NCBI GenBank assembly: GCA_030266985.1
Contig: JAJDJB010000004.1
Span: forward strand, 1 to 64,000
DNA: 64,000 nucleotides
Source: Synergistaceae bacterium OttesenSCG-928-D05
GTDB taxonomy: Bacteria > Synergistota > Synergistia > Synergistales > Synergistaceae
Reading direction: 5' to 3'
Part shown: piece by piece, positions 30,683-42,147 of the stretch
Layout of the letters: each line of letters starts with the position of its first letter
How positions within the stretch are numbered: the stretch's first letter is position 1
Position numbers and translations under genes: made by a program
Notes under the pieces: generated by a model
What the model was told of the DNA's origin: nothing
Database searches by the model: none
The model's input: the letters and a program-made list of their open reading frames with translations, nothing else

Positions 30683-30748
30683 TATACTTACAAAAGCCGA
30701 TTCCTTAGACTCAGCGCGAAGACGATTCCGTACGCCTCCTCTATACCA

Positions 30749-30777
30749 CTTATCTTGTCGCACCCTATTGCTACAAT
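30749..30777 (+). promoter_or_regulatory. island promoter P1 (CTTATC-17-TACAAT)
   Basis: CTTATC (30749-30754), exactly 17 bases, then TACAAT (30772-30777). The whole stretch CCACTTATC-T-TG-T-CG-C-ACC matches P2 (38911) and P3 (39573). -35-like CTTATC is far from TTGACA, so a dedicated activator or sigma factor may be needed. An ACAATTG...CAATTGT dyad (30773-30799) overlaps the -10. Confidence 0.74.
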
Positions 30778-30834: not shown

Positions 30835-31080
30835 ATGCCCAAAGATATCAGTTCTATCAGGATCGCCCGGCTCAACACACTAATCAGAATCCTAATGAAC
30901 GGTCCTGTCAGAAAAAGTGAGATCTTTGAAAAAATACAATACACGGGACAGCGCACCTTTGAAAGAGACATCGCATACCTTCGGGACGAATTCCGCGCAG
31001 GCATCGTCTACGACGCGAAAACAAGGTCTTACGAACTCGCGGATAAAGGCATCTTCTCCCTAAGCTTTACGGAAGAATGA
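30835..31080 (+). CDS. short winged-helix protein, paralogue of the WYL regulator next door
   Basis: DNA-binding protein of 81 residues. MPKDISSIRIARLNTLIRIL, then an HTH with EIFEKIQYTGQRTFERDIAYLRDEF and a wing ending VYDAKTRSYELAD. It aligns along its whole length with residues 1-80 of the following HTH-WYL protein but has no WYL sensor domain. It could be a stand-alone repressor, or a dominant partner that forms mixed dimers with the full-length paralogue (inference). Preceded by P1 and by AGGAAGG. Confidence 0.8.
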   Translation: MPKDISSIRIARLNTLIRILMNGPVRKSEIFEKIQYTGQRTFERDIAYLRDEFRAGIVYDAKTRSYELADKGIFSLSFTEE

Positions 31081-31110: not shown

Positions 31111-31185
31111 TATCCATAATCTAATGTTACAATGGTGTTGAATGAAGCGGTTCATAATTCTATCAGTTCGAAGGGGCTCTCGACA

Positions 31186-32160
31186 TTGCCAAGAGATCTT
31201 TCATCTGTCAGGCTGGAACGCCTCAACACTATGATCAATCTTCTGCGCAGCAAACGCGGATACTCCAAACAGGAACTCATGGACAGGCTCGAAATCGGGT
31301 GCAACAGAACCTTCGAGCGTGATATGGAATTGCTGCGCGACCGTTTCCACGTCGAAGTCCATTACGATACGTCAAAAAAGAAATATTACTGCACGGACAC
31401 GGGCATGCTTGAACTTCACCTGAGCCTCACTCAGGAAGAAATGACCGCCGTCGCGGCAGGACTCAAAATGGCTGCGCACTTTCTCCCCCACCTCCAACAT
31501 GGCTCGGATACTTCATGGGATAAAATCAAACAGTTCGTTCCTGCAGGGATCCTGCACGAAGGAGAAAAACTCAGCAGCGCGGCAGTCGTCTCACTGCCCG
31601 TCTCTCCTTTGGATTCACACGTATTCCAGCAGTTGATCGACTTCATCAACCTGAAACAACCGGCAAAAGTCACATATGCCTCCCCTTATAAAGGAAACGA
31701 ACCGAAAAAACGAACCCTATTTCCCTGGGGCGTTTACTTCCAGTCACACGCATGGTATCTGTGGGCGGCATCACCGGAACATCCTGAAGGCGCGACATGG
31801 CGCGTATCAAGGGTTTTGAGCTGCGAACCCGCAAATGCGGAATGGCTCGCCCCGCCTCCGGACGTCACGGTCGAACAATACGCCGGCACCGCGTGGTTCG
31901 CAAGCCCCGGAGAATTAAAATACGACATTACTCTGCATCTCTTCCCTCCACTCTCCCACATCGTAGCAGAAACGCAATGGCATCCAACGCAGAAAATCGA
32001 AGAACAGGCAGATGGCTCCATCATCTACACAGCGAAAGTTCCTGATCTGGAAGAAGTCGCCCGCTGGGCGATGAGTTGCGCCCCGCATATTAAAGTGGTG
32101 GGGCCAAAGGAGTTGGTAACTCGTGTGGAAGGTTTGGCTACTTCGTTTTATAATAAGTAA
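31186..32160 (+). CDS. HTH-WYL transcriptional regulator
   Basis: Regulator of 324 residues. TTG at 31186 is taken as start: it has GAAGGGG nine bases upstream, and it makes the protein begin MPRDLSSVRLERLN, in register with the paralogue at 30835. The ATG at 31132 lies inside a -10-like box. Residues 1-80 are a winged helix (RTFERDMELLRDRF). A WYL domain covers about 155-235 (VTYASPYKGNEPKKRTLFPWGVYFQSHAWYLWAASPEH, R-x-SRVLSCE), followed by a WYL-C-like end. WYL proteins sense nucleic-acid-like ligands and often control phage-defence islands (BrxR, CapW). It precedes the dynamin/HerA/toxin genes. Confidence 0.9.
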   Translation: MPRDLSSVRLERLNTMINLLRSKRGYSKQELMDRLEIGCNRTFERDMELLRDRFHVEVHYDTSKKKYYCTDTGMLELHLSLTQEEMTAVAAGLKMAAHFLPHLQHGSDTSWDKIKQFVPAGILHEGEKLSSAAVVSLPVSPLDSHVFQQLIDFINLKQPAKVTYASPYKGNEPKKRTLFPWGVYFQSHAWYLWAASPEHPEGATWRVSRVLSCEPANAEWLAPPPDVTVEQYAGTAWFASPGELKYDITLHLFPPLSHIVAETQWHPTQKIEEQADGSIIYTAKVPDLEEVARWAMSCAPHIKVVGPKELVTRVEGLATSFYNK

Positions 32161-32214: not shown

Positions 32215-34563
32215 ATGTCCGACACTGTAATATCTATTAAGTACAATCCCTATACTATAAAAACTGAAGTCAAAATCAATGGTCAGACTCCGAAACCCAA
32301 CAGCAAATTAAATTATGGGAACCATCGTCTGCAGGAATGGATCGAGGAATTGCCAGCAACCTTAGAAGCTGAGTACAATGGCAAGGAATTCGACATTTAT
32401 TTTTGCGGTACGGAAGAAGATTACGAAGATTTGCTCGATGTTGTTGAGCACGCCAACAAAGATAGTTTTAAAATCCGTTGCGAGCATACAACCAAACCCA
32501 AAATGGCCATCTCAGAGCGAATTGCAACGCTAAATGATACTTTCGCGAAAATTCAACAGGGGCCAGTAGAAAAATTAAAAACAAAAGAAATCAAGGATGC
32601 TTTTAGCCAGGCGAGTAACGACATGCTTTCGATTTATGTTGTCGCCACCATGAGTGCGGGCAAAACAACCTTAATCAATGCATTGCTAGGTAACAAGCTA
32701 ATACCCTCACAGCAGCAAGCGTGTACTTCGGGCGTTACAGAGATAACGAATCATGATGGACTGGAGAGCTTTGAAGGGACAGCATTAAACAAAGAAAACG
32801 AAGAAATTAAGGTAGAGAAAGATTTGGACCTAAAAACTCTAGAAAGCTGTGACAACGACCTCGATATTCACGCTATCGAAATACACGGAGAGATTCCCCT
32901 CGTGACATCCAAAAACATCGCACTCAGGCTTATTAGCTTGCCAAGCCCCAGTAGCTCAAAGAATAAAGATGCACAGGTACGCATCCTCAAGGAGGCGCTA
33001 AATTCACATAAACATATTATTCTATACGTCCTAGACACCTTTCAGCTAGGACCGGAGGATGACGAAAATCTATTGGGTTCAATTGCAAAACTAATAAAAA
33101 ATGGTGGCAGGGAGGCTAACGAGCGCTTCCTTTTCGTCGTTAATAAACTGGATGAATTTAAGCCTGAAGAGGACATCCAAAGCGAGCTACAAAATCTGAA
33201 AGAAAATCTTAGGGCTATCGGCTTTCTTGACCCCAAGATTTTCCCGGTGTCTACGCAGACCGCCCTATCCCTTTGTACAACATTCAAGGACAAAACCCTA
33301 GACGATAAAAATTGCCATACGGATATAATCGACTTCCCCAGTGTAAGGACAATGATCGACAATGAACAATTACATTTGGAACAATATGCACCTCTTTCAG
33401 AAAAGCTAAAAAAAGAGATAGAAACAAAGGCCACTCAGATATTCCAATCCGACCATAAAATGCAAAATCTCCTTATAGCCTTCATGCATACAGGAATCCC
33501 TTCCTTAGAAACAGCGATCATGACCTATGTTACAAAATATGCGTACCCTATGAAAATTAAAAACATCTCCGATTCATTTTTGCCATTCTTAAACCATGAA
33601 TTATCTACCAGAAGCATTAAGCAGAGCGTTATTGGTAGCGAGGCAGAGAAAATACATCTTCTTAGCAAAACAATTGATACAATCGAAAACACGCTTAGCC
33701 ATGCTAAAGCAAACGATGAATTTAAGGCCACCCTAGATGCAAAAATTAACGATGTACAAAAAAAAGCAACAGAGGAAATAGAATCGTTTAAAAAAAATAT
33801 ACACAACCTCAAAACAATACTCATAAACAAGCATAGTGATAGTTTTTCAAAAAAGGAAATACAAAAAACTCAAGCAGAGGATATAGTTAATGAATTTAAA
33901 GAAATGGTAGAAAGAGTCGAAGCAGACACAGCACCCCATTTGCGTGAATCTCTCAAAAAGTATTACCAAGATACTTTTAAGAACATACCAGACGAGTTTG
34001 CACGCTGGACAGATACGCTCATGCCGGATTATCACAAGCGAGAGGACCAATTCTTAGCGCACTTCAAAAATGAAGCTGATTCAAAAGGTAAAACCATTTA
34101 TTTTAGTGGGGTTATGTTGAGCACCCACTACGTAGGATCAGGATCAACGCAAAACGCCCGTAAGGACAATCTCTCAAAAGCACTAATGTCTGGCGCAATC
34201 CTAGGAACAGCACTTGGACTTGGAGCCCCCGTTGCTGTGGCAGCAACAGTTTCTTTAATGCGATTGATCGCGCCTGAAGCATCTACAGTAAAAACTTCGG
34301 ATTTATACAAATATCTTACGCAAACCACAGAATCTCTCGAAAGCAAATTATGCAACGCTCTAAGTGAAAACATAAGATGCGCAACAGAAGGAATACAAAA
34401 CTATGTCGCTGAATACTTTGATAATATCCATACGTACCTGGACGAACAGAGAAAAAGATTGCCGGAAGCACAGCTTGAGAAAAGCAAGCTTGAAGAAGAC
34501 CTGAAACCTGCAAAATGGCTAATGGAAATAAAAGAACAGGTCGAATCTACAATAGCAATATAA
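32215..34563 (+). CDS. bacterial dynamin-like GTPase with degenerate G3
   Basis: Large GTPase of 782 residues. An N-terminal domain (1-135) is followed by the G domain: G1 ATMSAGK150TTLINALLG, a G2 Thr near 171, and G4 NKLD (310-313). G3, normally DxPG, reads S241-LPSPSS, so both the aspartate and the glycine are lost. A long helical region (about 400-640) with coiled coils and a hydrophobic AG-rich segment (about 661-695, SGAILGTALGLGAPVAVAATVSL) resemble the membrane paddle of bacterial dynamins. Base composition is visibly AT-richer than the flanks. Bacterial dynamins can delay lysis or protect membranes under phage attack. Its position after a WYL regulator supports such a role (inference). 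Confidence 0.86.
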   Translation: MSDTVISIKYNPYTIKTEVKINGQTPKPNSKLNYGNHRLQEWIEELPATLEAEYNGKEFDIYFCGTEEDYEDLLDVVEHANKDSFKIRCEHTTKPKMAISERIATLNDTFAKIQQGPVEKLKTKEIKDAFSQASNDMLSIYVVATMSAGKTTLINALLGNKLIPSQQQACTSGVTEITNHDGLESFEGTALNKENEEIKVEKDLDLKTLESCDNDLDIHAIEIHGEIPLVTSKNIALRLISLPSPSSSKNKDAQVRILKEALNSHKHIILYVLDTFQLGPEDDENLLGSIAKLIKNGGREANERFLFVVNKLDEFKPEEDIQSELQNLKENLRAIGFLDPKIFPVSTQTALSLCTTFKDKTLDDKNCHTDIIDFPSVRTMIDNEQLHLEQYAPLSEKLKKEIETKATQIFQSDHKMQNLLIAFMHTGIPSLETAIMTYVTKYAYPMKIKNISDSFLPFLNHELSTRSIKQSVIGSEAEKIHLLSKTIDTIENTLSHAKANDEFKATLDAKINDVQKKATEEIESFKKNIHNLKTILINKHSDSFSKKEIQKTQAEDIVNEFKEMVERVEADTAPHLRESLKKYYQDTFKNIPDEFARWTDTLMPDYHKREDQFLAHFKNEADSKGKTIYFSGVMLSTHYVGSGSTQNARKDNLSKALMSGAILGTALGLGAPVAVAATVSLMRLIAPEASTVKTSDLYKYLTQTTESLESKLCNALSENIRCATEGIQNYVAEYFDNIHTYLDEQRKRLPEAQLEKSKLEEDLKPAKWLMEIKEQVESTIAI

Positions 34564-34573
34564 TCCCAAATTG

Positions 34574-34609
34574 CTGGGCACGATTATACCCGGTACCAAT
34601 CTCGCCCAG
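34574..34609 (+). repeat. imperfect hairpin between dynamin-like and HerA-like genes
   Basis: CTGGGC...GCCCAG (6 bp), a two-base mismatch, then GATT...AATC around a 12-base loop. No T-run follows. It may attenuate read-through from the dynamin gene into the HerA operon. Confidence 0.5.
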
Positions 34610-34652
34610 TAATACATTGGTTCTTAGTTTTTTTTGAAAGGAAGCTGAGGAT

Positions 34653-37600
34653 ATGCAATCAGGAAACAACATTATGCCCGCGCAGCAGGATTTGCTCCAA
34701 ATTATGCCCGCGCAGCAGGATTTGCTCCAAAAGTTCGGTGCCGCGCTTGAGAGCGTAAACGATATCTTGCTGAAAAACTATTTGCTGCATTTGAAGGAAT
34801 TCGAAGTCCTCCCGTTCGAAAAAAAAGATATTGCCGCAATACCGAGCAAGGACGTTCGCTTATTCAAAATAACGAAAATGGTTTACGAAAAAGATGAATA
34901 TGCCCTGCATAAATTCGAAAGCGTCTTCAGTTCCATTTCTGAAACCGCGTCCTCCTTGTTTGTCATTATCGACGGGAACAAAGATACGACTGATTTCTAC
35001 ATGGGGGTGCGAGGTGATGATCCTGTCCGTACAACCCATTCAATATATGACACCTTAAAAAAATCATTTCGAGGGCATTTTCCGGGAACATCTTTAGAAG
35101 AAGAATATGATGCTAAAAAAATTTCAACCCTTGTCCAGCGCATACAGCGACGCGATAAATCTATTGCGTCCGTTTCGTGTATACCAGGCCCTAAAGATGA
35201 TAGTATTCGTGAAAACCGCACTTTCCTTCAGGGCCTTGAAAAATTGGCGATTGCTATGCAGGGCGAGGAATACACAGGCATTCTCCTTGCAAATACCTCC
35301 GACAGGGCGCAGCTTGCTATGCTGAGGCAGGAATATGAAAAACTCTATACTGATTTATGCCCTTTCGCATCTCTACAACTTAATCTAGGAAAAAATGAAT
35401 CCCTTAGCTTTGCCTTCAGCGAAAGCGAAACGAAATCTCAAAGTACAACGATTTCTCAACCCCTAAAAAGTATATTTGCGCAAGCAGCAACAAGCGCTGT
35501 CGGTATAATAAGCAAAGTGCTTGCGCCAGCCACAGGAGGGATAAGCACTCAAGCTGGAATAGTAGTCTCAGCCATACTAGCACCAGCTATAAAACCGACA
35601 AAGACCGAGACGGACTCGCAGAGTGAAACAAAGACCAAAACACGGCAAAAAGGATCTTCACATGCAATGACGTTTACCCTAACAGATAAATATCTGCAAA
35701 ACACATTGGAACGCTTGGAAGAACAAATTCAACGGCTACAGGAATTCGAAAGCTTAAGCATGTGGGAATTCGCCGCCTACTTCCTCGCCGACGACACCGC
35801 CTTAGCGGAGACAGCGGCCGCAACATATAAGGCCATGGTAACAGGAGAGCATTCCGGGGTTGAAATCTCGGCATTAAATACATGGCTTTCAAACGCGGAG
35901 CCGGATAAAACAAACATGCTGCGGACATATATTTCGAACTTTGAGCACCCTCTTTTCATCTACCGCCATTTTGGAGGGGCGGACAATGTCGCACCTGCCA
36001 ATTATGTTAGCGGCAGAGAGCTTGCATTTGCGATGGGGCTCCCGCGTAATTCCGTAGCAGGCTTCCCTGTTGTTGAGCATTCCGCGTTCGGCAAAGAAAT
36101 TGTTCAATATGCACCCGAGAAGACAGAAGGCCATTTAGAGTTGGGACATATTTTTAATATGGGAAGCGAACAGCGCAATACTGTAACACTAAACAAAGAG
36201 AGCCTGTCAATGCATACTTTTATAACAGGTTCCACGGGTTCCGGGAAAAGCAATACGGTGTATGAGATCTTGCATCAGTTGGATAAGTCGGGTGTGCGTT
36301 TTCTGATTGTCGAGCCCGCAAAGGGTGAATATAAGAACATTTTCTCTCACAACAAAAACGTTAATTTTTATGGAACGAACCCCAAACTTGCGCCGCTTTT
36401 ACGAATCAACCCCTTTCGTTTTCCGCAAGGAATACATGTTTTGGAACACATAGACCGTTTGTCCGAGATCTTTAACGTTTGCTGGCCAATGTACGCCGCT
36501 ATGCCTGCCATTCTAAAAGATGCACTTTTACAATCTTATGAATCCTGCGGGTGGAATCTTACCACTTCAAAAAACGAATATTCGGAAGACCTTTTCCCCA
36601 CTTTCAGCGACCTTCTTGACGAGCTTGTTGCTGTCATCGAACAGTCGGCATATTCAGACGAACTAAAAAGCAACTACATTGGTTCTCTTGTGACACGCGT
36701 GAAATCGCTGACAAACGGTTTAAACGGACAATTGTTTTCCGCAGATGAGTTGGACAACAATATCCTATTCGACCAAAACACACTGATAGATTTAAGCCGT
36801 GTTTTCTCGACTGAAACTAAGGCGCTCATTATGGGTGTGCTCATTATGAGATTGAATGAACACAGGATTGCTTTTTCGGAGGGAATGAACGTGCCACTCC
36901 GCCATGTAACAGTTTTGGAAGAAGCGCACAACATTTTGAGACGCACGTCCGGCAATGAACAATCGGCGGAAAGCCCAAGTCTTGCTGCAAAATCTGTGGA
37001 ATTGCTATCGAACTCTATCGCTGAAATGCGCACCTACGGGGAAGGATTTATCATCGCAGATCAGTCTCCTAGCGCGGTGGATTTCTCTGCGATTCGCAAC
37101 ACAAATACAAAAATCATAATGCGGCTACCGGACGAATCGGACCGGCGTTTCGCCGGAAAAGCAGCTGCTCTGAAAGACGAACAACTGGATGAAATCGCGA
37201 AACTGCCCCGTGGCGTAGCTGTCGTCTATCAAAACAACTGGCTGGAACCTGTGTTATGTAAAATCAAAAAATGTGGGCTCAAAGAGGAGCCATATCACTA
37301 TAATCACGAGGAAGTTTCGAAAGAAACGCCCAGTCTCAATTTCAAGATTGAGTTTGTGAAACTGCTACTGAAAGGCCGTTCGCTGGAACCAATCACACCG
37401 GAGATTGATTTCCTTAGGCAGAATCTAACCGCAGCAGAACTTCCAACAAAATATAAGTTGGCTCTCGATGTGCTACTCAAAGAATACAAAGAAAAGCAAA
37501 GACTAGAGATATGGCAAAATTCCAACTTCCATACTTTGGCAAAGATGGTCACAGATTTGTTCTGCAACAGGAATCGAATCGTGAACTGTGTGACAGCGGC

Positions 37601-37781
37601 AGACGACTTCCTTGTCTTAAACGCTGAGATGAACGCGATCATTGATTCACAAGCAGCCGGCCTTTCAGATGAATTCAAGTTACATATCAGACACTGTTTT
37701 ATGAGAGAATATTACAGAGACAAACCTGAGAACATCAAAATATACGCAGCTTGGCGCAAAAGCGTTGAAAGGGGGATGTAG
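34653..37781 (+). CDS. HerA/VirB4-type (DUF87) pump ATPase with large N-terminal domain
   Basis: ATPase of 1042 residues. Walker A is G526-STGSGKS533 in MHTFITGSTGSGKS, followed by VRFLIVEPAKGEYKNIF; Walker B is TVLEEAHN (E756/E757); IIADQSPSAVD follows, as in HerA. The ~520-residue N-terminus has no family I can name and contains a hydrophobic, Ala/Gly-rich stretch (273-313) flanked by Ser/Thr/Lys-rich runs. This could be a membrane-dipping hairpin. Ten residues (IMPAQQDLLQ) are duplicated at the start by a 30-bp tandem repeat. It ends at the start of an LHH-nuclease gene, as HerA partners do in defence operons; a toxin-exporting pump is the alternative. ATG at 34653 has AGGAAG upstream. Confidence 0.87.
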   Translation: MQSGNNIMPAQQDLLQIMPAQQDLLQKFGAALESVNDILLKNYLLHLKEFEVLPFEKKDIAAIPSKDVRLFKITKMVYEKDEYALHKFESVFSSISETASSLFVIIDGNKDTTDFYMGVRGDDPVRTTHSIYDTLKKSFRGHFPGTSLEEEYDAKKISTLVQRIQRRDKSIASVSCIPGPKDDSIRENRTFLQGLEKLAIAMQGEEYTGILLANTSDRAQLAMLRQEYEKLYTDLCPFASLQLNLGKNESLSFAFSESETKSQSTTISQPLKSIFAQAATSAVGIISKVLAPATGGISTQAGIVVSAILAPAIKPTKTETDSQSETKTKTRQKGSSHAMTFTLTDKYLQNTLERLEEQIQRLQEFESLSMWEFAAYFLADDTALAETAAATYKAMVTGEHSGVEISALNTWLSNAEPDKTNMLRTYISNFEHPLFIYRHFGGADNVAPANYVSGRELAFAMGLPRNSVAGFPVVEHSAFGKEIVQYAPEKTEGHLELGHIFNMGSEQRNTVTLNKESLSMHTFITGSTGSGKSNTVYEILHQLDKSGVRFLIVEPAKGEYKNIFSHNKNVNFYGTNPKLAPLLRINPFRFPQGIHVLEHIDRLSEIFNVCWPMYAAMPAILKDALLQSYESCGWNLTTSKNEYSEDLFPTFSDLLDELVAVIEQSAYSDELKSNYIGSLVTRVKSLTNGLNGQLFSADELDNNILFDQNTLIDLSRVFSTETKALIMGVLIMRLNEHRIAFSEGMNVPLRHVTVLEEAHNILRRTSGNEQSAESPSLAAKSVELLSNSIAEMRTYGEGFIIADQSPSAVDFSAIRNTNTKIIMRLPDESDRRFAGKAAALKDEQLDEIAKLPRGVAVVYQNNWLEPVLCKIKKCGLKEEPYHYNHEEVSKETPSLNFKIEFVKLLLKGRSLEPITPEIDFLRQNLTAAELPTKYKLALDVLLKEYKEKQRLEIWQNSNFHTLAKMVTDLFCNRNRIVNCVTAADDFLVLNAEMNAIIDSQAAGLSDEFKLHIRHCFMREYYRDKPENIKIYAAWRKSVERGM
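34671..34730 (+). repeat. 30-bp exact tandem duplication at the 5' end of the HerA-like gene
   Basis: Positions 34671-34700 and 34701-34730 are identical, encoding IMPAQQDLLQ twice. The unit length is a multiple of three, so copy-number change would keep the frame. Each unit contains an in-frame ATG (34674, 34704), so alternative starts are possible. Confidence 0.97.
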
Positions 37782-38429
37782 TTGGATATGGACAAGGTTT
37801 TCGGCATGTTTTCAGAATGCTTAGAAACAGAAAGTGCGCTTTCCAAATTGGCAGAGAGCATGAAGGATTTGCCCCTTGATATAGCGAAGTTGGATGTGCC
37901 AATCCTTTATGGGGATACACACCGCGTGCCTGAGGACAAAGAAAGCGACGGCGACGATATTAACACCTCCCCCGAAACAAATGAGACACAAAATGAAGGA
38001 CTAGCTGAGGAAGAAAAACAGCAAATTGAAAAAGAGTCTGGTTGGTCTAAAGAGATCATCGACGCCATCGGTTCTATGGCTGAGTATGAAATCTATAAAA
38101 ATGCGGGACTACAAGAAGCAGAGATCAACGGAAAAAAGTGTCTGATTCGTTCAGATATTGATATGAATCAAAAAGATGCAGACGGTATGACCAATAAAGA
38201 ACGCATGGAAAAAGGATTGTCCCCGTTAACAAAAAGCGGAGAGACTGTTGAATTACACCATATCGGTCAACGTTCCGATGGTCCTCTGGCCGAGCTTACT
38301 ACGAAGGAACATCGAGGAACAGGGAACGATACCATCCTACACGATAAGACCAAGGAAAGCGAAATTGACAGGAATCAATTCGCGACAGAAAGACGCGAGC
38401 ACTGGCAAAATCGTGCCGACCAGCAATAG
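37782..38429 (+). CDS. LHH-type HNH/EndoVII nuclease toxin
   Basis: Protein of 215 residues. The C-terminal half (about 85-215) is a recognisable LHH nuclease: ESGWSKEIIDAIGSMAEYEIYKNAGL, LIRSDIDMNQKDADGMTNKERMEKGL, then VELH159H160IGQ, PLAELTTKEHR and HWQNRADQQ. LHH domains are usually the toxic tip of polymorphic toxins. Here the N-terminus (1-80) is short, acidic and has no WXG, LXG, RHS or signal peptide. It starts at TTG 37782 immediately after the HerA stop (GGGGG ribosome site six bases upstream); the ATG at 37788 is the alternative. The SUKH gene 12 bases downstream is its expected immunity protein. Confidence 0.9.
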   Translation: MDMDKVFGMFSECLETESALSKLAESMKDLPLDIAKLDVPILYGDTHRVPEDKESDGDDINTSPETNETQNEGLAEEEKQQIEKESGWSKEIIDAIGSMAEYEIYKNAGLQEAEINGKKCLIRSDIDMNQKDADGMTNKERMEKGLSPLTKSGETVELHHIGQRSDGPLAELTTKEHRGTGNDTILHDKTKESEIDRNQFATERREHWQNRADQQ

Positions 38430-38441
38430 GGAGGGATAAAC

Positions 38442-38840
38442 ATGTCTACAATAGTAGAAAAAATAGAAAAACTGCCAAATATGATCTCTTTTACAAATGC
38501 AACAGCGGATCAAATCAAAAATGCGGAGGCAGAGCTAAATCTCCGTTTTGCCGACGAATACAGAGACTATCTCGCTGCTTTTGGTGCGGTTGTGGCAGAC
38601 GGCACAGAATTGACTGGTATAGCAAACTCTGAGCACAGGAAAGTAACTGCTGTCACAAAACGAGAATGGGAGCTCAATCCCCAAGTTCCCCATTCTATGT
38701 ACGTCGTTGAGAACGTTGGCATAGATGGCATCATTATCTGGCAAGATGCCAGCGGTACAATTTATCAATCCTTGCCAAAAAAAGATCCGGAGAAAATTTT
38801 CGAAGACTTGGCCGACTACTTATCTTCAAAAGAAAAATAG
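38442..38840 (+). CDS. SUKH/SMI1-KNR4-family immunity protein
   Basis: Protein of 132 residues with the SUKH pattern: ATADQIKNAEAELNLRFADEYRDYLAAFGAV, a middle GTELTGIA, then MYVVENVGIDGIIIWQDASGTIYQSLP and a C-terminal FEDLADYLSS. SUKH proteins neutralise nuclease toxins, and an LHH toxin gene lies just upstream, so the pair is typical. ATG follows AGGGAGG. It closes the HerA-LHH-SUKH operon, which ends at the terminator at 38863-38894. Confidence 0.92.
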   Translation: MSTIVEKIEKLPNMISFTNATADQIKNAEAELNLRFADEYRDYLAAFGAVVADGTELTGIANSEHRKVTAVTKREWELNPQVPHSMYVVENVGIDGIIIWQDASGTIYQSLPKKDPEKIFEDLADYLSSKEK

Positions 38841-38862: not shown

Positions 38863-38894
38863 AAAAGCCTCCGACATCCAGGGGGCTTTTTTTT
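38863..38894 (+). terminator. rho-independent terminator of the HerA-LHH-SUKH operon
   Basis: AAAAGCC-T-CC (38863-38872) pairs with GG-G-GGCTTTT (38881-38890) around an 8-base loop, followed by a T-run. P2 begins 17 bases later. Confidence 0.88.
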
Positions 38895-38910
38895 GCCTCA
38901 AACGCACCCA

Positions 38911-38939
38911 CTTATCATGTCGTACCTCCGATGTAAGAT
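38911..38939 (+). promoter_or_regulatory. island promoter P2 (CTTATC-17-TAAGAT)
   Basis: CTTATC (38911-38916), 17 bases, TAAGAT (38934-38939). It shares CCACTTATC-A-TG-T-CG-T-ACC with P1 and P3. A start near 38946 is expected, which would leave the left arm of the overlapping inverted repeat mostly untranscribed. Confidence 0.74.
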
Positions 38940-38999
38940 GAATTTGTAAACGCGAAAAACAGAGTTTCTCGCGCATACAAATTCAAACGACATCGGAGG
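38925..38999 (+). repeat. 75-bp imperfect inverted repeat spanning the P2 -10 box to the ribosome site
   Basis: CCTCCGATGT (38925-38934) pairs with ACATCGGAGG (38990-38999), TGAATTTGTA (38939-38948) with TACAAATTCA (38976-38985), and GCGA (38952-38955) with TCGC (38969-38972). Short unpaired stretches separate these and an inner AAAC-AGA-GTTT closes the loop. The right arm contains GGAGG, the ribosome site of the gene at 39008. RNA begun upstream would hide that site; RNA begun at P2 would lack most of the left arm. Confidence 0.9.
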
Positions 39000-39007
39000 A
39001 GTTTTTT

Positions 39008-39454
39008 ATGGCGTTACCTTGGCTAGTTATCAAAACGGTTGGCTATATTGGATTGGGAATATACGCATTAGGGGAATCATACAGTATGGGAAAATCGGCA
39101 GGAAATGAGGAAGGCAAGCAAAATATTCTGACAAAATTCTCAAACGCTTATCGTGTAAAATTAAAAGAACAAGCCATGCAATTTATAAATGACTCGCATA
39201 TATATATAGCAGAAGAAGCAAGAGTAAAAGAAAAATTTGAGGAATACGAAGAGCTAAAACAAAATTACATTGAATATATTGCAACGCTCGAAGAGATGCT
39301 AAAGATTGAGGACTCAGAATTGATAAAAGAAAGATTATCAGAGGCCTCGGCAATATTAAACCAGCTTGAGGGATTTACAAAAACATGTATCGCAATGCTG
39401 CGCCAGAAGCTAAACGCAGAGCTCGAAGATAACGGCGCGGTTTTGGAGTCATAA
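39008..39454 (+). CDS. small protein with N-terminal membrane segment and coiled coil
   Basis: Protein of 148 residues. The N-terminus is hydrophobic (LVIKTVGYIGLGIYALGESYSMG, residues 6-28). The rest is a charged helix pair (about 45-140, KEKFEEYEELKQNYIEYIATLEEMLKIED). I recognise no family. It has its own promoter P2, a read-through-sensitive hairpin over its ribosome site and its own terminator, so its expression is tightly isolated from the toxin operon upstream. Tight control of a small membrane protein is typical of a toxic or lysis-type product, but that is inference. Confidence 0.75.
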   Translation: MALPWLVIKTVGYIGLGIYALGESYSMGKSAGNEEGKQNILTKFSNAYRVKLKEQAMQFINDSHIYIAEEARVKEKFEEYEELKQNYIEYIATLEEMLKIEDSELIKERLSEASAILNQLEGFTKTCIAMLRQKLNAELEDNGAVLES

Positions 39455-39501: not shown

Positions 39502-39538
39502 AGCGGGCGGCCGACCCTTACGGCCGCCCGCTACGTTT
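39502..39538 (+). terminator. strong 12-bp hairpin terminator
   Basis: AGCGGGCGGCCG (39502-39513) pairs perfectly with 39521-39532 around ACCCTTA, followed by ACGTTTTG. Sequence resembles the hairpin at 22994-23019 (GGGCGGCC core). Confidence 0.85.
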
Positions 39539-39572
39539 TGTGTAAAAAACGCGCTTCGTTTCTCGAACCCCA

Positions 39573-39601
39573 CTTATCCTGACGCACCCGAATACTAGAA
39601 T
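39573..39601 (+). promoter_or_regulatory. island promoter P3 (CTTATC-17-TAGAAT)
   Basis: CTTATC (39573-39578), 17 bases, TAGAAT (39596-39601), sharing CCACTTATC-C-TG-A-CG-C-ACC with P1 and P2. It precedes the small membrane gene at 39643. Confidence 0.74.
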
Positions 39602-39642: not shown

Positions 39643-39972
39643 ATGAGCGATACGTCAAAACAAGGTCAGTCCAGCAGCGTGAATCCGGTCATATGGATCT
39701 ATGCGATTCTCTCACCCTGCGCGGTGGTTTATTTTGTGCTATGGGGCAACGGTCACGGTTTCTTCCGAAACTTACTGCCGTTTGTTTGTTTTTCGATTGT
39801 CGCGTTTATCGGCGCGCTGGTGGGCGATTTCATCAGAAGGCTGCTGATGCCCGCTTTTATTGTGGGGCGGGATACTTCGGACATGATCCTGTCTCAAATA
39901 TTTTGGTGGATAGGCCCGCAGGCTATCGGAATGGCGTTGGGCGTCGGGTTTATTCGTAAATGGTTTTTCTGA
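39643..39972 (+). CDS. small polytopic membrane protein
   Basis: Protein of 109 residues with a polar N-terminus and three likely membrane helices (about 15-33, 40-62, 84-104) with conserved-looking glycine and aromatic residues (IWIYAILSPCAVVYFVLWGNGHGF, FWWIGPQAIGMALGVGFI). No family recognised. GAAGGGAAG lies upstream of ATG 39643. The next gene starts 72 bases on without a terminator, so both are likely driven by P3. Confidence 0.72.
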   Translation: MSDTSKQGQSSSVNPVIWIYAILSPCAVVYFVLWGNGHGFFRNLLPFVCFSIVAFIGALVGDFIRRLLMPAFIVGRDTSDMILSQIFWWIGPQAIGMALGVGFIRKWFF

Positions 39973-40044
39973 TTGCCAATCAGTTTTTTAAGCATCCCCG
40001 CATTCGCGGATATTTAACATAACAGTTCAAAGGAGGCGCGTAAG

Positions 40045-42147
40045 ATGCCAGTAACATTTCATGTGTACGGTCAGAAAGTGGAAATCAACGACCGATATGT
40101 TCTGTATAACGAAATTCGCCGGAAATATGCGCAGCTGGCAAAGGAAGCTGCCGAGAAATTTATGGAAGCATATGACGATTACGGCGATATCGAGACCTTT
40201 GCCAAGGACGGCTACGGGGACGGCACGAAGATTATCATCGGAGTGGCGGAGGCCAATGTGATTAATCCGCTGGTGCAGGAACACGGCGTGCTTCATATCG
40301 ATATCGATCTCTTTATAAGGACATATTATCATTCTCATTTTGTATGGGAAACGTACAGCGATAAGATCATCGACAAATATATGGAGATCAAGCTGGACCA
40401 GGAACAATTGGACGAGTACCGTACGCAGCGCCGCGAAAGCCGCGGACGCGTGATTGGCGGCGGTTTTGGCGTCGGCGGCGCGGTCCAGGGTATGATGACG
40501 GCGGGCGCGGTCAATATGGCGGCGGGCGCGGTCCACGGAGCGTTTAACCTGATCGGCAAGGGTTTCAGCATGCTTGGCGAAAGCTTTGAAAAATCCAGAC
40601 TCTACTCGAGTGAGGAGACAAAAAACACACTTTACACCGGGATATATCAATCCGTCTTCAACATGCACTTTGCGCACTGGAAAGTATTCAACGACCTGAA
40701 CCTCATACCCGTAAAGGACGGTATTATTCAATATCTCTCAGAAAGCGAGCGTGAAAACGCGAAATCCGTTCTAAAAAATTTGCCGAAAATGACGGCAGAA
40801 AAAGCCGCTTCTTTGGTGCCGGGAATTCTCCTTCAGAATCCTTATGACCTTCACACCTATCAGAGCATGCTGCAGTTCCTCGGCGACAGTGCGAACGAGC
40901 TGGAACAGGTCGGAAATTATTTCGGGAATGACATCGTGCACGTCAAGCGAGATATGCTCGAAGATGTCTTTGAAAAATACAGCCCGGAAGTGACGGACAC
41001 GGAAGAAGAAGTTCTGCAGGCAAGAGAGGCTTATTTCGGCGAATACAAAAAACTCGGCGGCGGCAAGGATGGAGAAAAACGGCTCGAAGAGATTGACGCC
41101 ATGCTTGCGGAGATTGACCTGGAAGCCCGAACTGTCGACTCATTTGTTTTCGATACGCGCGAAGAAGCCGATCAGGCGAAACGCCATTTATCGATTGTCC
41201 ATAAAGCATTGGAAGACATAGACTATAAAAAATCTGAGGATCAGGCAAAGATGGCCTTTGCAAGGCTTTCCAAGCACGATCAATCATCCCCCATCATCCT
41301 AAAATATTTGGAAGATATACAAGCGAAATTGACCGCTTTCGATATCGAGGCCCGTACATCCAATAATATTCTCTTTGATACGAGAGGAGAAAAAAATGCG
41401 GCGGATACCGTTTTCACGACTTTAGCCAAAATCAAAAAGATGAACGGTATAAACGATGAAAATATTTTTGGTGTAATTCGTTCCGCGACATCACTTACTT
41501 TGTTGAAATCAGCACAGCACAATATCTTTCTGACACAATTCGTCGACGATCTTCTTGAATCGAACGACGAACGACTGGCACTGCAAACAAAGGATTTTAT
41601 CGCAGCCGCTGAAGTGACGCCGGAAACAAGAAAAGCAATGGATACGCTCAAAAAACTTGTTGCAAAGAAACTAATTTCGATTGATACAGGACTGCGTTCA
41701 GTTGTATGCCACGACAACACTTTTGTTTTTGAGACACGCGAGGAAGCAGCCGTTGTAAGAGAAGAAGCGGAACGACTGGAAGACGCTTATACAAAATTCA
41801 CAAAATCGCCCGAGGAAAAAAAGCTTTTTTCCGAACTTCTGGAAAAAACCAATCATCAGGGCGTAAAAGATACTTATGCAAGTTTGTCGGATACCTTCCT
41901 GCAGGAACAAGAGAAAATCGTAGCGGAATCCGAAGGCTTAATGGACCATATCGGAGGCATCGCTCTGGGGGCTGCGTTTACATTTATTCCGCTTTACTTT
42001 ATGTTGAAAAGTTGGAGTACCTGGAGCTGGTTCGGCAAGAAAACAATCGTCGGGTTCCTGTTCTTGTCCGGAATTTTCGGCATGTACGATCAGACAATGA
42101 CTTTGATAAAAACACGAAAAGCTATGAAATACCACGCTGACAAGTAA
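40045..42147 (+). CDS. large membrane protein with three FDTREEA-type repeats
   Basis: Protein of 700 residues, family not recognised. The N-terminal domain (1-130) is followed by a Gly/Ala-rich hydrophobic stretch (138-170) that could insert in a membrane, a helical middle, and three similar units at about 349-388, 427-464 and 544-582. Each unit has an I-D-x-x-x-R-(T/S) start, an F-(D/E)-T-R core and a following charged helix (FVFDTREEADQAKR, ILFDTRGEKNAAD, FVFETREEAAVVRE). Two C-terminal membrane helices (about 635-655 and 670-688) end with a basic tail. AAAGGAGG precedes the ATG. Last gene of the island; terminator at 42173. Confidence 0.75.
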   Translation: MPVTFHVYGQKVEINDRYVLYNEIRRKYAQLAKEAAEKFMEAYDDYGDIETFAKDGYGDGTKIIIGVAEANVINPLVQEHGVLHIDIDLFIRTYYHSHFVWETYSDKIIDKYMEIKLDQEQLDEYRTQRRESRGRVIGGGFGVGGAVQGMMTAGAVNMAAGAVHGAFNLIGKGFSMLGESFEKSRLYSSEETKNTLYTGIYQSVFNMHFAHWKVFNDLNLIPVKDGIIQYLSESERENAKSVLKNLPKMTAEKAASLVPGILLQNPYDLHTYQSMLQFLGDSANELEQVGNYFGNDIVHVKRDMLEDVFEKYSPEVTDTEEEVLQAREAYFGEYKKLGGGKDGEKRLEEIDAMLAEIDLEARTVDSFVFDTREEADQAKRHLSIVHKALEDIDYKKSEDQAKMAFARLSKHDQSSPIILKYLEDIQAKLTAFDIEARTSNNILFDTRGEKNAADTVFTTLAKIKKMNGINDENIFGVIRSATSLTLLKSAQHNIFLTQFVDDLLESNDERLALQTKDFIAAAEVTPETRKAMDTLKKLVAKKLISIDTGLRSVVCHDNTFVFETREEAAVVREEAERLEDAYTKFTKSPEEKKLFSELLEKTNHQGVKDTYASLSDTFLQEQEKIVAESEGLMDHIGGIALGAAFTFIPLYFMLKSWSTWSWFGKKTIVGFLFLSGIFGMYDQTMTLIKTRKAMKYHADK

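What the first reader, a model, noticed from the sequence alone, without database searches (positions are those of the whole stretch)
38925..38999. 75-bp inverted repeat could act as a lock against read-through expression
The arms run from the P2 -10 box to the GGAGG of the gene at 39008. RNA entering from the upstream toxin operon would contain both arms and bury the ribosome site in a long stem. RNA starting at P2 (about 38946) lacks the outer left arm and leaves GGAGG free. IS10/IS50 transposase genes use the same trick to stay silent when read from outside. Such protection suggests the small membrane protein is dangerous when made at the wrong time.
Basis: partly seen in the sequence, partly recalled or inferred. 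Interest (0 to 1): 0.74.

Follow-up and report, generated by a model that had tools for sequence, protein, structure and literature searches.

The report
RNA lock against read-through expression
A long hairpin in front of a small gene next to a bacterial toxin cluster is predicted to block its translation when RNA arrives from the neighbouring genes but not when the gene's own promoter is used, the same design phage T4 uses to keep its lysis enzyme silent until it is wanted.

Summary
The inverted repeat is real: arms 38925-38960 and 38964-38999, 29 of 36 positions complementary, 3-nt loop. It is the strongest fold for its G+C content in the window and the only strong inverted repeat there that covers a start site. 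Its -35/operator (38908-38926) and -10 (38934-38939, spacing 17) match two other promoters in this island, promoters of small genes directly upstream of WYL-regulator genes in related genomes, and one cas3 promoter. A matrix built only from relatives ranks these three window sites first. The -10 lies in the left arm, so P2 RNA loses the part that pairs with GGAGG.

Computed cost of freeing the Shine-Dalgarno is 13-15 kcal/mol in read-through RNA and 2-6 in P2 RNA. T4 lysozyme gene e, a published case of this lock, gives 12.5-14 versus 2-5.5 with the same code. T4 gene e and I-TevI are closer models than IS10/IS50.

Not shown: transcription start, read-through RNA, translation. Covariation is untestable because the gene has no detectable relatives. 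That its product is dangerous is unsupported, and a membrane segment is only borderline. Weaker lock-like pairing occurs in one other WYL-linked operon, not as a general feature.

The parts
38925..38934 (+). outer left arm CCTCCGATGT, pairs with 38990-38999 (covers GGAGG)
38939..38948 (+). second left helix, pairs with 38976-38985
38951..38973 (+). inner hairpin (5 + 4 bp, loop 38961-38963); stays at the 5' end of the predicted P2 RNA
38990..38999 (+). outer right arm ACATCGGAGG containing the Shine-Dalgarno GGAGG 38995-38999
39002..39007 (+). T6 tract 2 nt after the stem (possible weak terminator element)
38908..38926 (+). promoter/operator motif CCACTTATCATGTCGTACC; CTTATC 38911-38916 in the -35 position
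38934..38939 (+). P2 -10 box TAAGAT, 17 bp from CTTATC, inside the left arm
38946..38946 (+). predicted transcription start of P2 (inferred from the -10; not mapped)
   Evidence: inference; folds for starts 38935-38950
39008..39454 (+). 148-aa protected gene, no known family, predicted helical
38863..38890 (+). intrinsic-terminator-like hairpin ending the toxin/immunity operon, upstream of the lock
37782..38429 (+). LHH nuclease toxin-type gene (Pfam LHH, 1.5e-25), part of the read-through source
38442..38840 (+). SUKH-family immunity-type gene, last gene before the terminator
30746..30777 (+). sibling promoter P1: same operator, -10 TACAAT, upstream of an HTH gene (30835-31080) and the WYL regulator
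39570..39601 (+). sibling promoter P3: same operator, -10 TAGAAT, upstream of gene 39643; no lock
31132..32160 (+). WYL-type regulator, candidate binder of the operator (PADLOC WYL 4.7e-25)

Best explanation
The repeat is a cis-acting translational insulator. Gene 39008 is meant to be expressed only from P2, a promoter that shares its operator with WYL-regulator operons. RNA that enters from the upstream dynamin/HerA/LHH/SUKH operon past the terminator at 38863-38890 contains both arms and buries GGAGG in a 29-bp stem, so it is not translated. RNA starting at P2 (about 38946) lacks the outer left arm and most of the second helix, so the Shine-Dalgarno is open and a small 5' hairpin remains. 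Shown by sequence or computation: the repeat, the promoter motif, their overlap, and the energy difference. Inferred: the start site, the existence of read-through RNA, the translation effect, and binding by the WYL protein.
For: Repeat beyond chance. P2 motif CCACTTATCNTGNCGNACC-N7-TANNAT occurs three times in the window and nowhere else in the genome with fewer than 2 mismatches in the operator. Relatives' promoters, found by scanning around WYL-homologue genes, carry it with the same 17-bp spacing; the downstream genes are small ~115-aa genes directly before WYL genes, and one further site precedes a cas3-like gene. A matrix from relatives alone ranks the three window sites 1-3 (23.1-29.0 versus 12.7 for the next). 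Freeing the Shine-Dalgarno costs 13-15 kcal/mol in read-through RNA and 2-6 for any start from 38935 to 38950. Shuffling the leader from 45 nt upstream of the motif to the start site never reproduces this (5.8 +/- 1.7 versus 13.8, 0 of 100). Third highest of 173 start sites. T4 gene e gives 12.5-14 versus 2.3-5.5 with the same code, and its read-through mRNA is reported to make about 100-fold less lysozyme (PMC3014915). No ORF of 30 aa or more on the + strand crosses the left arm, so upstream ribosomes would not open it.
Against: No mapped start site, RNA or protein data. The gene has no relatives, so base-pair covariation cannot be tested. The upstream terminator already limits read-through. 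P3, under the same operator, has no lock. P2 RNA still has moderate alternative pairing at the Shine-Dalgarno (3-6 kcal/mol).
Confidence: 0.68

Rival explanations
1. The hairpin plus the T6 tract acts mainly as a transcription terminator for read-through RNA polymerase; P2 RNA lacks the left arm and escapes it. The insulating effect would be the same, but at the level of RNA synthesis, alone or together with the translational lock.
For: Stem ends at 38999 and six T follow at 39002-39007.
Against: The T tract starts 2 nt off the stem, and a terminator score (d'Aubenton Carafa form) is -39 versus +28 for the core of the upstream terminator. The score is poorly calibrated here: other hairpins with T-rich tails also score negative.
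Confidence: 0.13
2. The arms are a DNA element: binding sites for a regulator, or a cruciform, around the start of P2.
For: WYL regulators BrxR and CapW bind palindromic promoter DNA (PMC9122601, PMC9122588). ATGTCGT of the operator recurs inverted as ACGACAT in the right arm.
Against: The conserved operator lies upstream of the left arm and overlaps it by only 2 bp. No second operator scores in the arms. The pairing runs without gaps down to a 3-nt loop, and the siblings P1 and P3 have the operator without this repeat.
Confidence: 0.1
3. A recent inverted duplication or insertion without function, which happens to cover the start site.
For: Arms align without gaps, as in a local inverted duplication. 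The repeat is unique in the genome and no relatives exist.
Against: The outer helix that covers GGAGG is 10/10 paired and four of the seven mismatches fall in the -10 box (chance about 0.8%, post hoc), which fits a constrained element. Promoter and lock overlap as in T4 gene e.
Confidence: 0.09

Closest known systems
Phage T4 gene e (lysozyme), soc, gene 49 and I-TevI translation locks
   Same: Long RNA from upstream sequesters the Shine-Dalgarno or start codon; the proper promoter sits in the left arm, so its RNA is free (PMC3014915, PMC2988022). Energies computed here are nearly equal.
   Different: Bacterial chromosomal island next to a toxin/immunity operon; promoter carries a WYL-type operator instead of a T4 late promoter; longer stem (29 bp, 75 nt).
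IS10/IS50 and IS200 protection from outside transcription
   Same: Read-through RNA hides the ribosome site (IS10/IS50 from general knowledge; IS200 has a stem that terminates impinging transcripts and one that occludes the ribosome site, cited in PMC3196728).
   Different: Not a transposase, single copy, not at a mobile-element end.
WYL-regulated defence promoters (BrxR, CapW)
   Same: WYL-type regulator in the island and an operator in the promoter (PMC9122601, PMC9122588).
   Different: The operator here overlaps the -35 and spacer and has another sequence; those papers concern DNA binding and repression, not an RNA lock.

Membership tests
Read-through translation lock (T4 gene e type) | Shine-Dalgarno paired in RNA that starts upstream | tested here: met
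   13-15 kcal/mol to open; leader shuffles 0 of 100
Read-through translation lock (T4 gene e type) | Own promoter lies within the left arm so its RNA lacks that arm | tested here: met
   -10 at 38934-38939 inside the arm; motif shared with relatives. The start site itself is not mapped
Read-through translation lock (T4 gene e type) | Energy gap comparable to a published case | tested here: met
Read-through translation lock (T4 gene e type) | Read-through RNA exists and is poorly translated in cells | not testable with these tools
   needs RNA and reporter data
Read-through translation lock (T4 gene e type) | Pairing kept by compensatory changes in relatives | not testable with these tools
   no relatives of the gene found
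IS10/IS50-type transposon self-protection | Protected gene is a transposase at the end of a mobile element | tested here: not met
   no transposase family hit; repeat single-copy in the genome
Intrinsic terminator | Stem followed at once by a T tract | tested here: inconclusive
   T6 starts 2 nt after the stem; score -39, poorly calibrated
WYL-controlled promoter | Operator sequence shared with promoters of WYL-gene operons | tested here: met
WYL-controlled promoter | WYL protein binds the operator | not testable with these tools
   needs a binding assay

The most novel reading that the evidence does not exclude
WYL-controlled genes in bacterial islands carry a second key: besides the regulator, an RNA lock with its left arm in or just upstream of the promoter blocks translation of read-through RNA. 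Besides gene 39008, a small-gene/WYL operon in three genomes of another family shows pairing of TTCACGATCCCTCC with the Shine-Dalgarno and GTG start.
Probability: 0.12. Interest if true: 0.66.

Novelty: new member of a known kind. Interest (0 to 1): 0.5.

Why it matters
If true, an insulating trick known from phage late genes and transposons also protects a chromosomal gene beside a toxin/immunity operon. It would give a direct, cheap test (two reporter RNAs) of whether genes in such islands are shielded from neighbouring transcription, and it offers a sequence signature, with the promoter's -10 inside the left arm of a Shine-Dalgarno-covering repeat, that can be searched for elsewhere. The promoter motif also gives a candidate operator for a WYL regulator family of Synergistota.

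Tried and rejected
Relatives of gene 39008 were sought in 101 related genomes, then 188 of the phylum, in viral contigs, GTDB genome contigs, plasmids and phages: none at a convincing E-value, so no covariation test. Repeat as a multi-copy element: single copy; short matches in relatives are at chance level. Rfam: only a tRNA in the window. General lock in WYL promoters: leader shuffles give significance only for 39008 and one orthologous operon family (L093, L094, L055); 30747 is marginal (5 of 100) and the others are not significant. The CTCC upstream of the operator in relatives may be part of the DNA site. Motif in GTDB genome contigs: two hits, one inside an amylase-like coding gene (chance), one the cas3 site; none in viral contigs. 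One-mismatch motif hits in the phylum are no more frequent than the reversed-pattern control. Structure prediction of the 148-aa protein from a single sequence: helices only, mean pLDDT 60, not used further.

Full report
What is there. The window lies in an incomplete assembly (1.77 Mb in 107 contigs, 67% complete). A genome the search places in the same order carries the motif at the same contig position and length as a record titled 'uncultured Synergistaceae', so the source is probably of the Synergistota. The island reads: promoter P1 (30746), a small HTH gene (30835-31080), a WYL-type regulator (31132-32160), a dynamin-like GTPase (32215), a HerA/DUF87 ATPase (34653), an LHH nuclease toxin-type gene (37782), a SUKH immunity-type gene (38442-38840), a terminator-like hairpin (38863-38890), P2 and the repeat, gene 39008, a hairpin at 39502-39532, P3 (39570), gene 39643 and gene 40045.

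The observation. The inverted repeat is present at the stated coordinates: arms 38925-38960 and 38964-38999, 29 of 36 positions complementary, no gaps, a 3-nt loop. Its fold is beyond chance by shuffling (z -6.5), is the most extreme in the window after correction for G+C, and exceeds ten Markov surrogates as a palindrome. Among the strongest palindromes of the window it is the only one that ends on a Shine-Dalgarno and start codon.

P2 is very probably a real promoter, by comparison. A 19-base motif, CCACTTATCNTGNCGNACC, occurs exactly three times in the genome, all in this island and on the same strand. In each case CTTATC is followed 17 bp later by TACAAT, TAAGAT or TAGAAT. Scanning the loci of WYL homologues found the same operator and spacing in other families of the order (L043, L047, L051, L052, L055, and L098). 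There the first gene downstream is a small ~115-aa gene followed by WYL genes. One more site precedes a cas3-like gene in L028/L097. A matrix made only from relatives' sites puts the three window sites at the top, 29.0, 24.0 and 23.1 bits against 12.7 for the next. This is not fully independent, because the relatives' sites were first found with the window pattern. In the scan of GTDB genome contigs the strict pattern has two hits, one of them inside a coding gene, so the signal is confined to this group.

The lock. The -10 box lies inside the left arm. In RNA that starts upstream the cost of freeing GGAGGAG is 13-15 kcal/mol; for any start from 38935 to 38950 it is 2-6. Shuffling the leader from 45 nt upstream of the motif to the start site, with the rest kept, gives 5.8 +/- 1.7 and never reaches 13.8. 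Among 173 start sites in the window and related loci it is third; the top site looks like a doubtful start call and the second is the L093 operon described below. As a yardstick the same code was run on T4 gene e, where the long RNA is known to be locked and the late promoter lies in the left arm: 12.5-14 in long RNA, 2.3-5.5 in late RNA (literature). The two cases are nearly equal in the quantity that matters. No + strand ORF of 30 aa or more crosses the left arm, so upstream ribosomes should not open it.

Details that fit a constrained element. Four of seven mismatches between the arms fall in the -10 box (chance about 0.8%, a post hoc count). One reading is that the right arm avoids copying the -10, which would create an opposing promoter; this is inference. 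The P2 RNA keeps the inner 9-bp hairpin at its 5' end, which may protect it from decay; this too is inference.

What is not shown. There is no start-site, RNA or protein evidence. The gene has no relatives, so compensatory changes cannot be sought. The upstream terminator makes read-through rarer, which weakens the need for a lock but matches the two-level protection described for IS200. The T6 tract could add a terminator function; the score used here argues against it but is not well calibrated.

Is it general? P3 has no lock; P1 is marginal. In an operon of three genomes of another family the segment upstream of the operator pairs with the Shine-Dalgarno and the GTG start (L093, L094, L055; 0, 0 and 3 of 100 shuffles), but these are orthologues and count as one event, the native RNA is also partly closed, and part of the pairing uses CTCC next to the operator, which may be conserved as DNA. 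The remaining WYL-type promoters show nothing beyond chance. So the strong lock is a property of gene 39008, not of the regulon.

Verdict. It works like T4 gene e; it is not an IS10-type element.

Noticed in passing
window 30746-30777, 38908-38939, 39570-39601: Three co-oriented promoters with one operator motif (CCACTTATCNTGNCGNACC, -10 at 17 bp), a likely WYL regulon; related sites precede small genes upstream of WYL genes and one cas3-like gene in relatives.
   Followed up: yes
L093 7752-7880, L094, L055: In a small-gene/WYL operon just downstream of a branched-chain amino acid transporter operon, TTCACGATCCCTCC upstream of the promoter can pair with the Shine-Dalgarno and the GTG start.
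   Followed up: partly
window 30835-31080: 81-aa HTH-only gene resembling the N-terminal part of the WYL regulator next to it (39% identity), directly behind P1; may be a partner or a truncated copy.
   Followed up: no
window 32215-38840: Dynamin-like GTPase, 1042-aa HerA/DUF87 ATPase, LHH nuclease and SUKH immunity gene in one apparent operon; matches to the HerA-type ATPase in 14 of 188 phylum genomes (own included), only some over most of its length. Possible defence or competition system.
   Followed up: no
window 38917-38923 and 38987-38993: Operator core ATGTCGT recurs inverted as ACGACAT in the right arm, a possible second half-site or alternative RNA pairing.
   Followed up: no
window 39643-42147: Two genes behind P3 (109 aa with two hydrophobic stretches, 700 aa) without any significant family match.
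   Followed up: no
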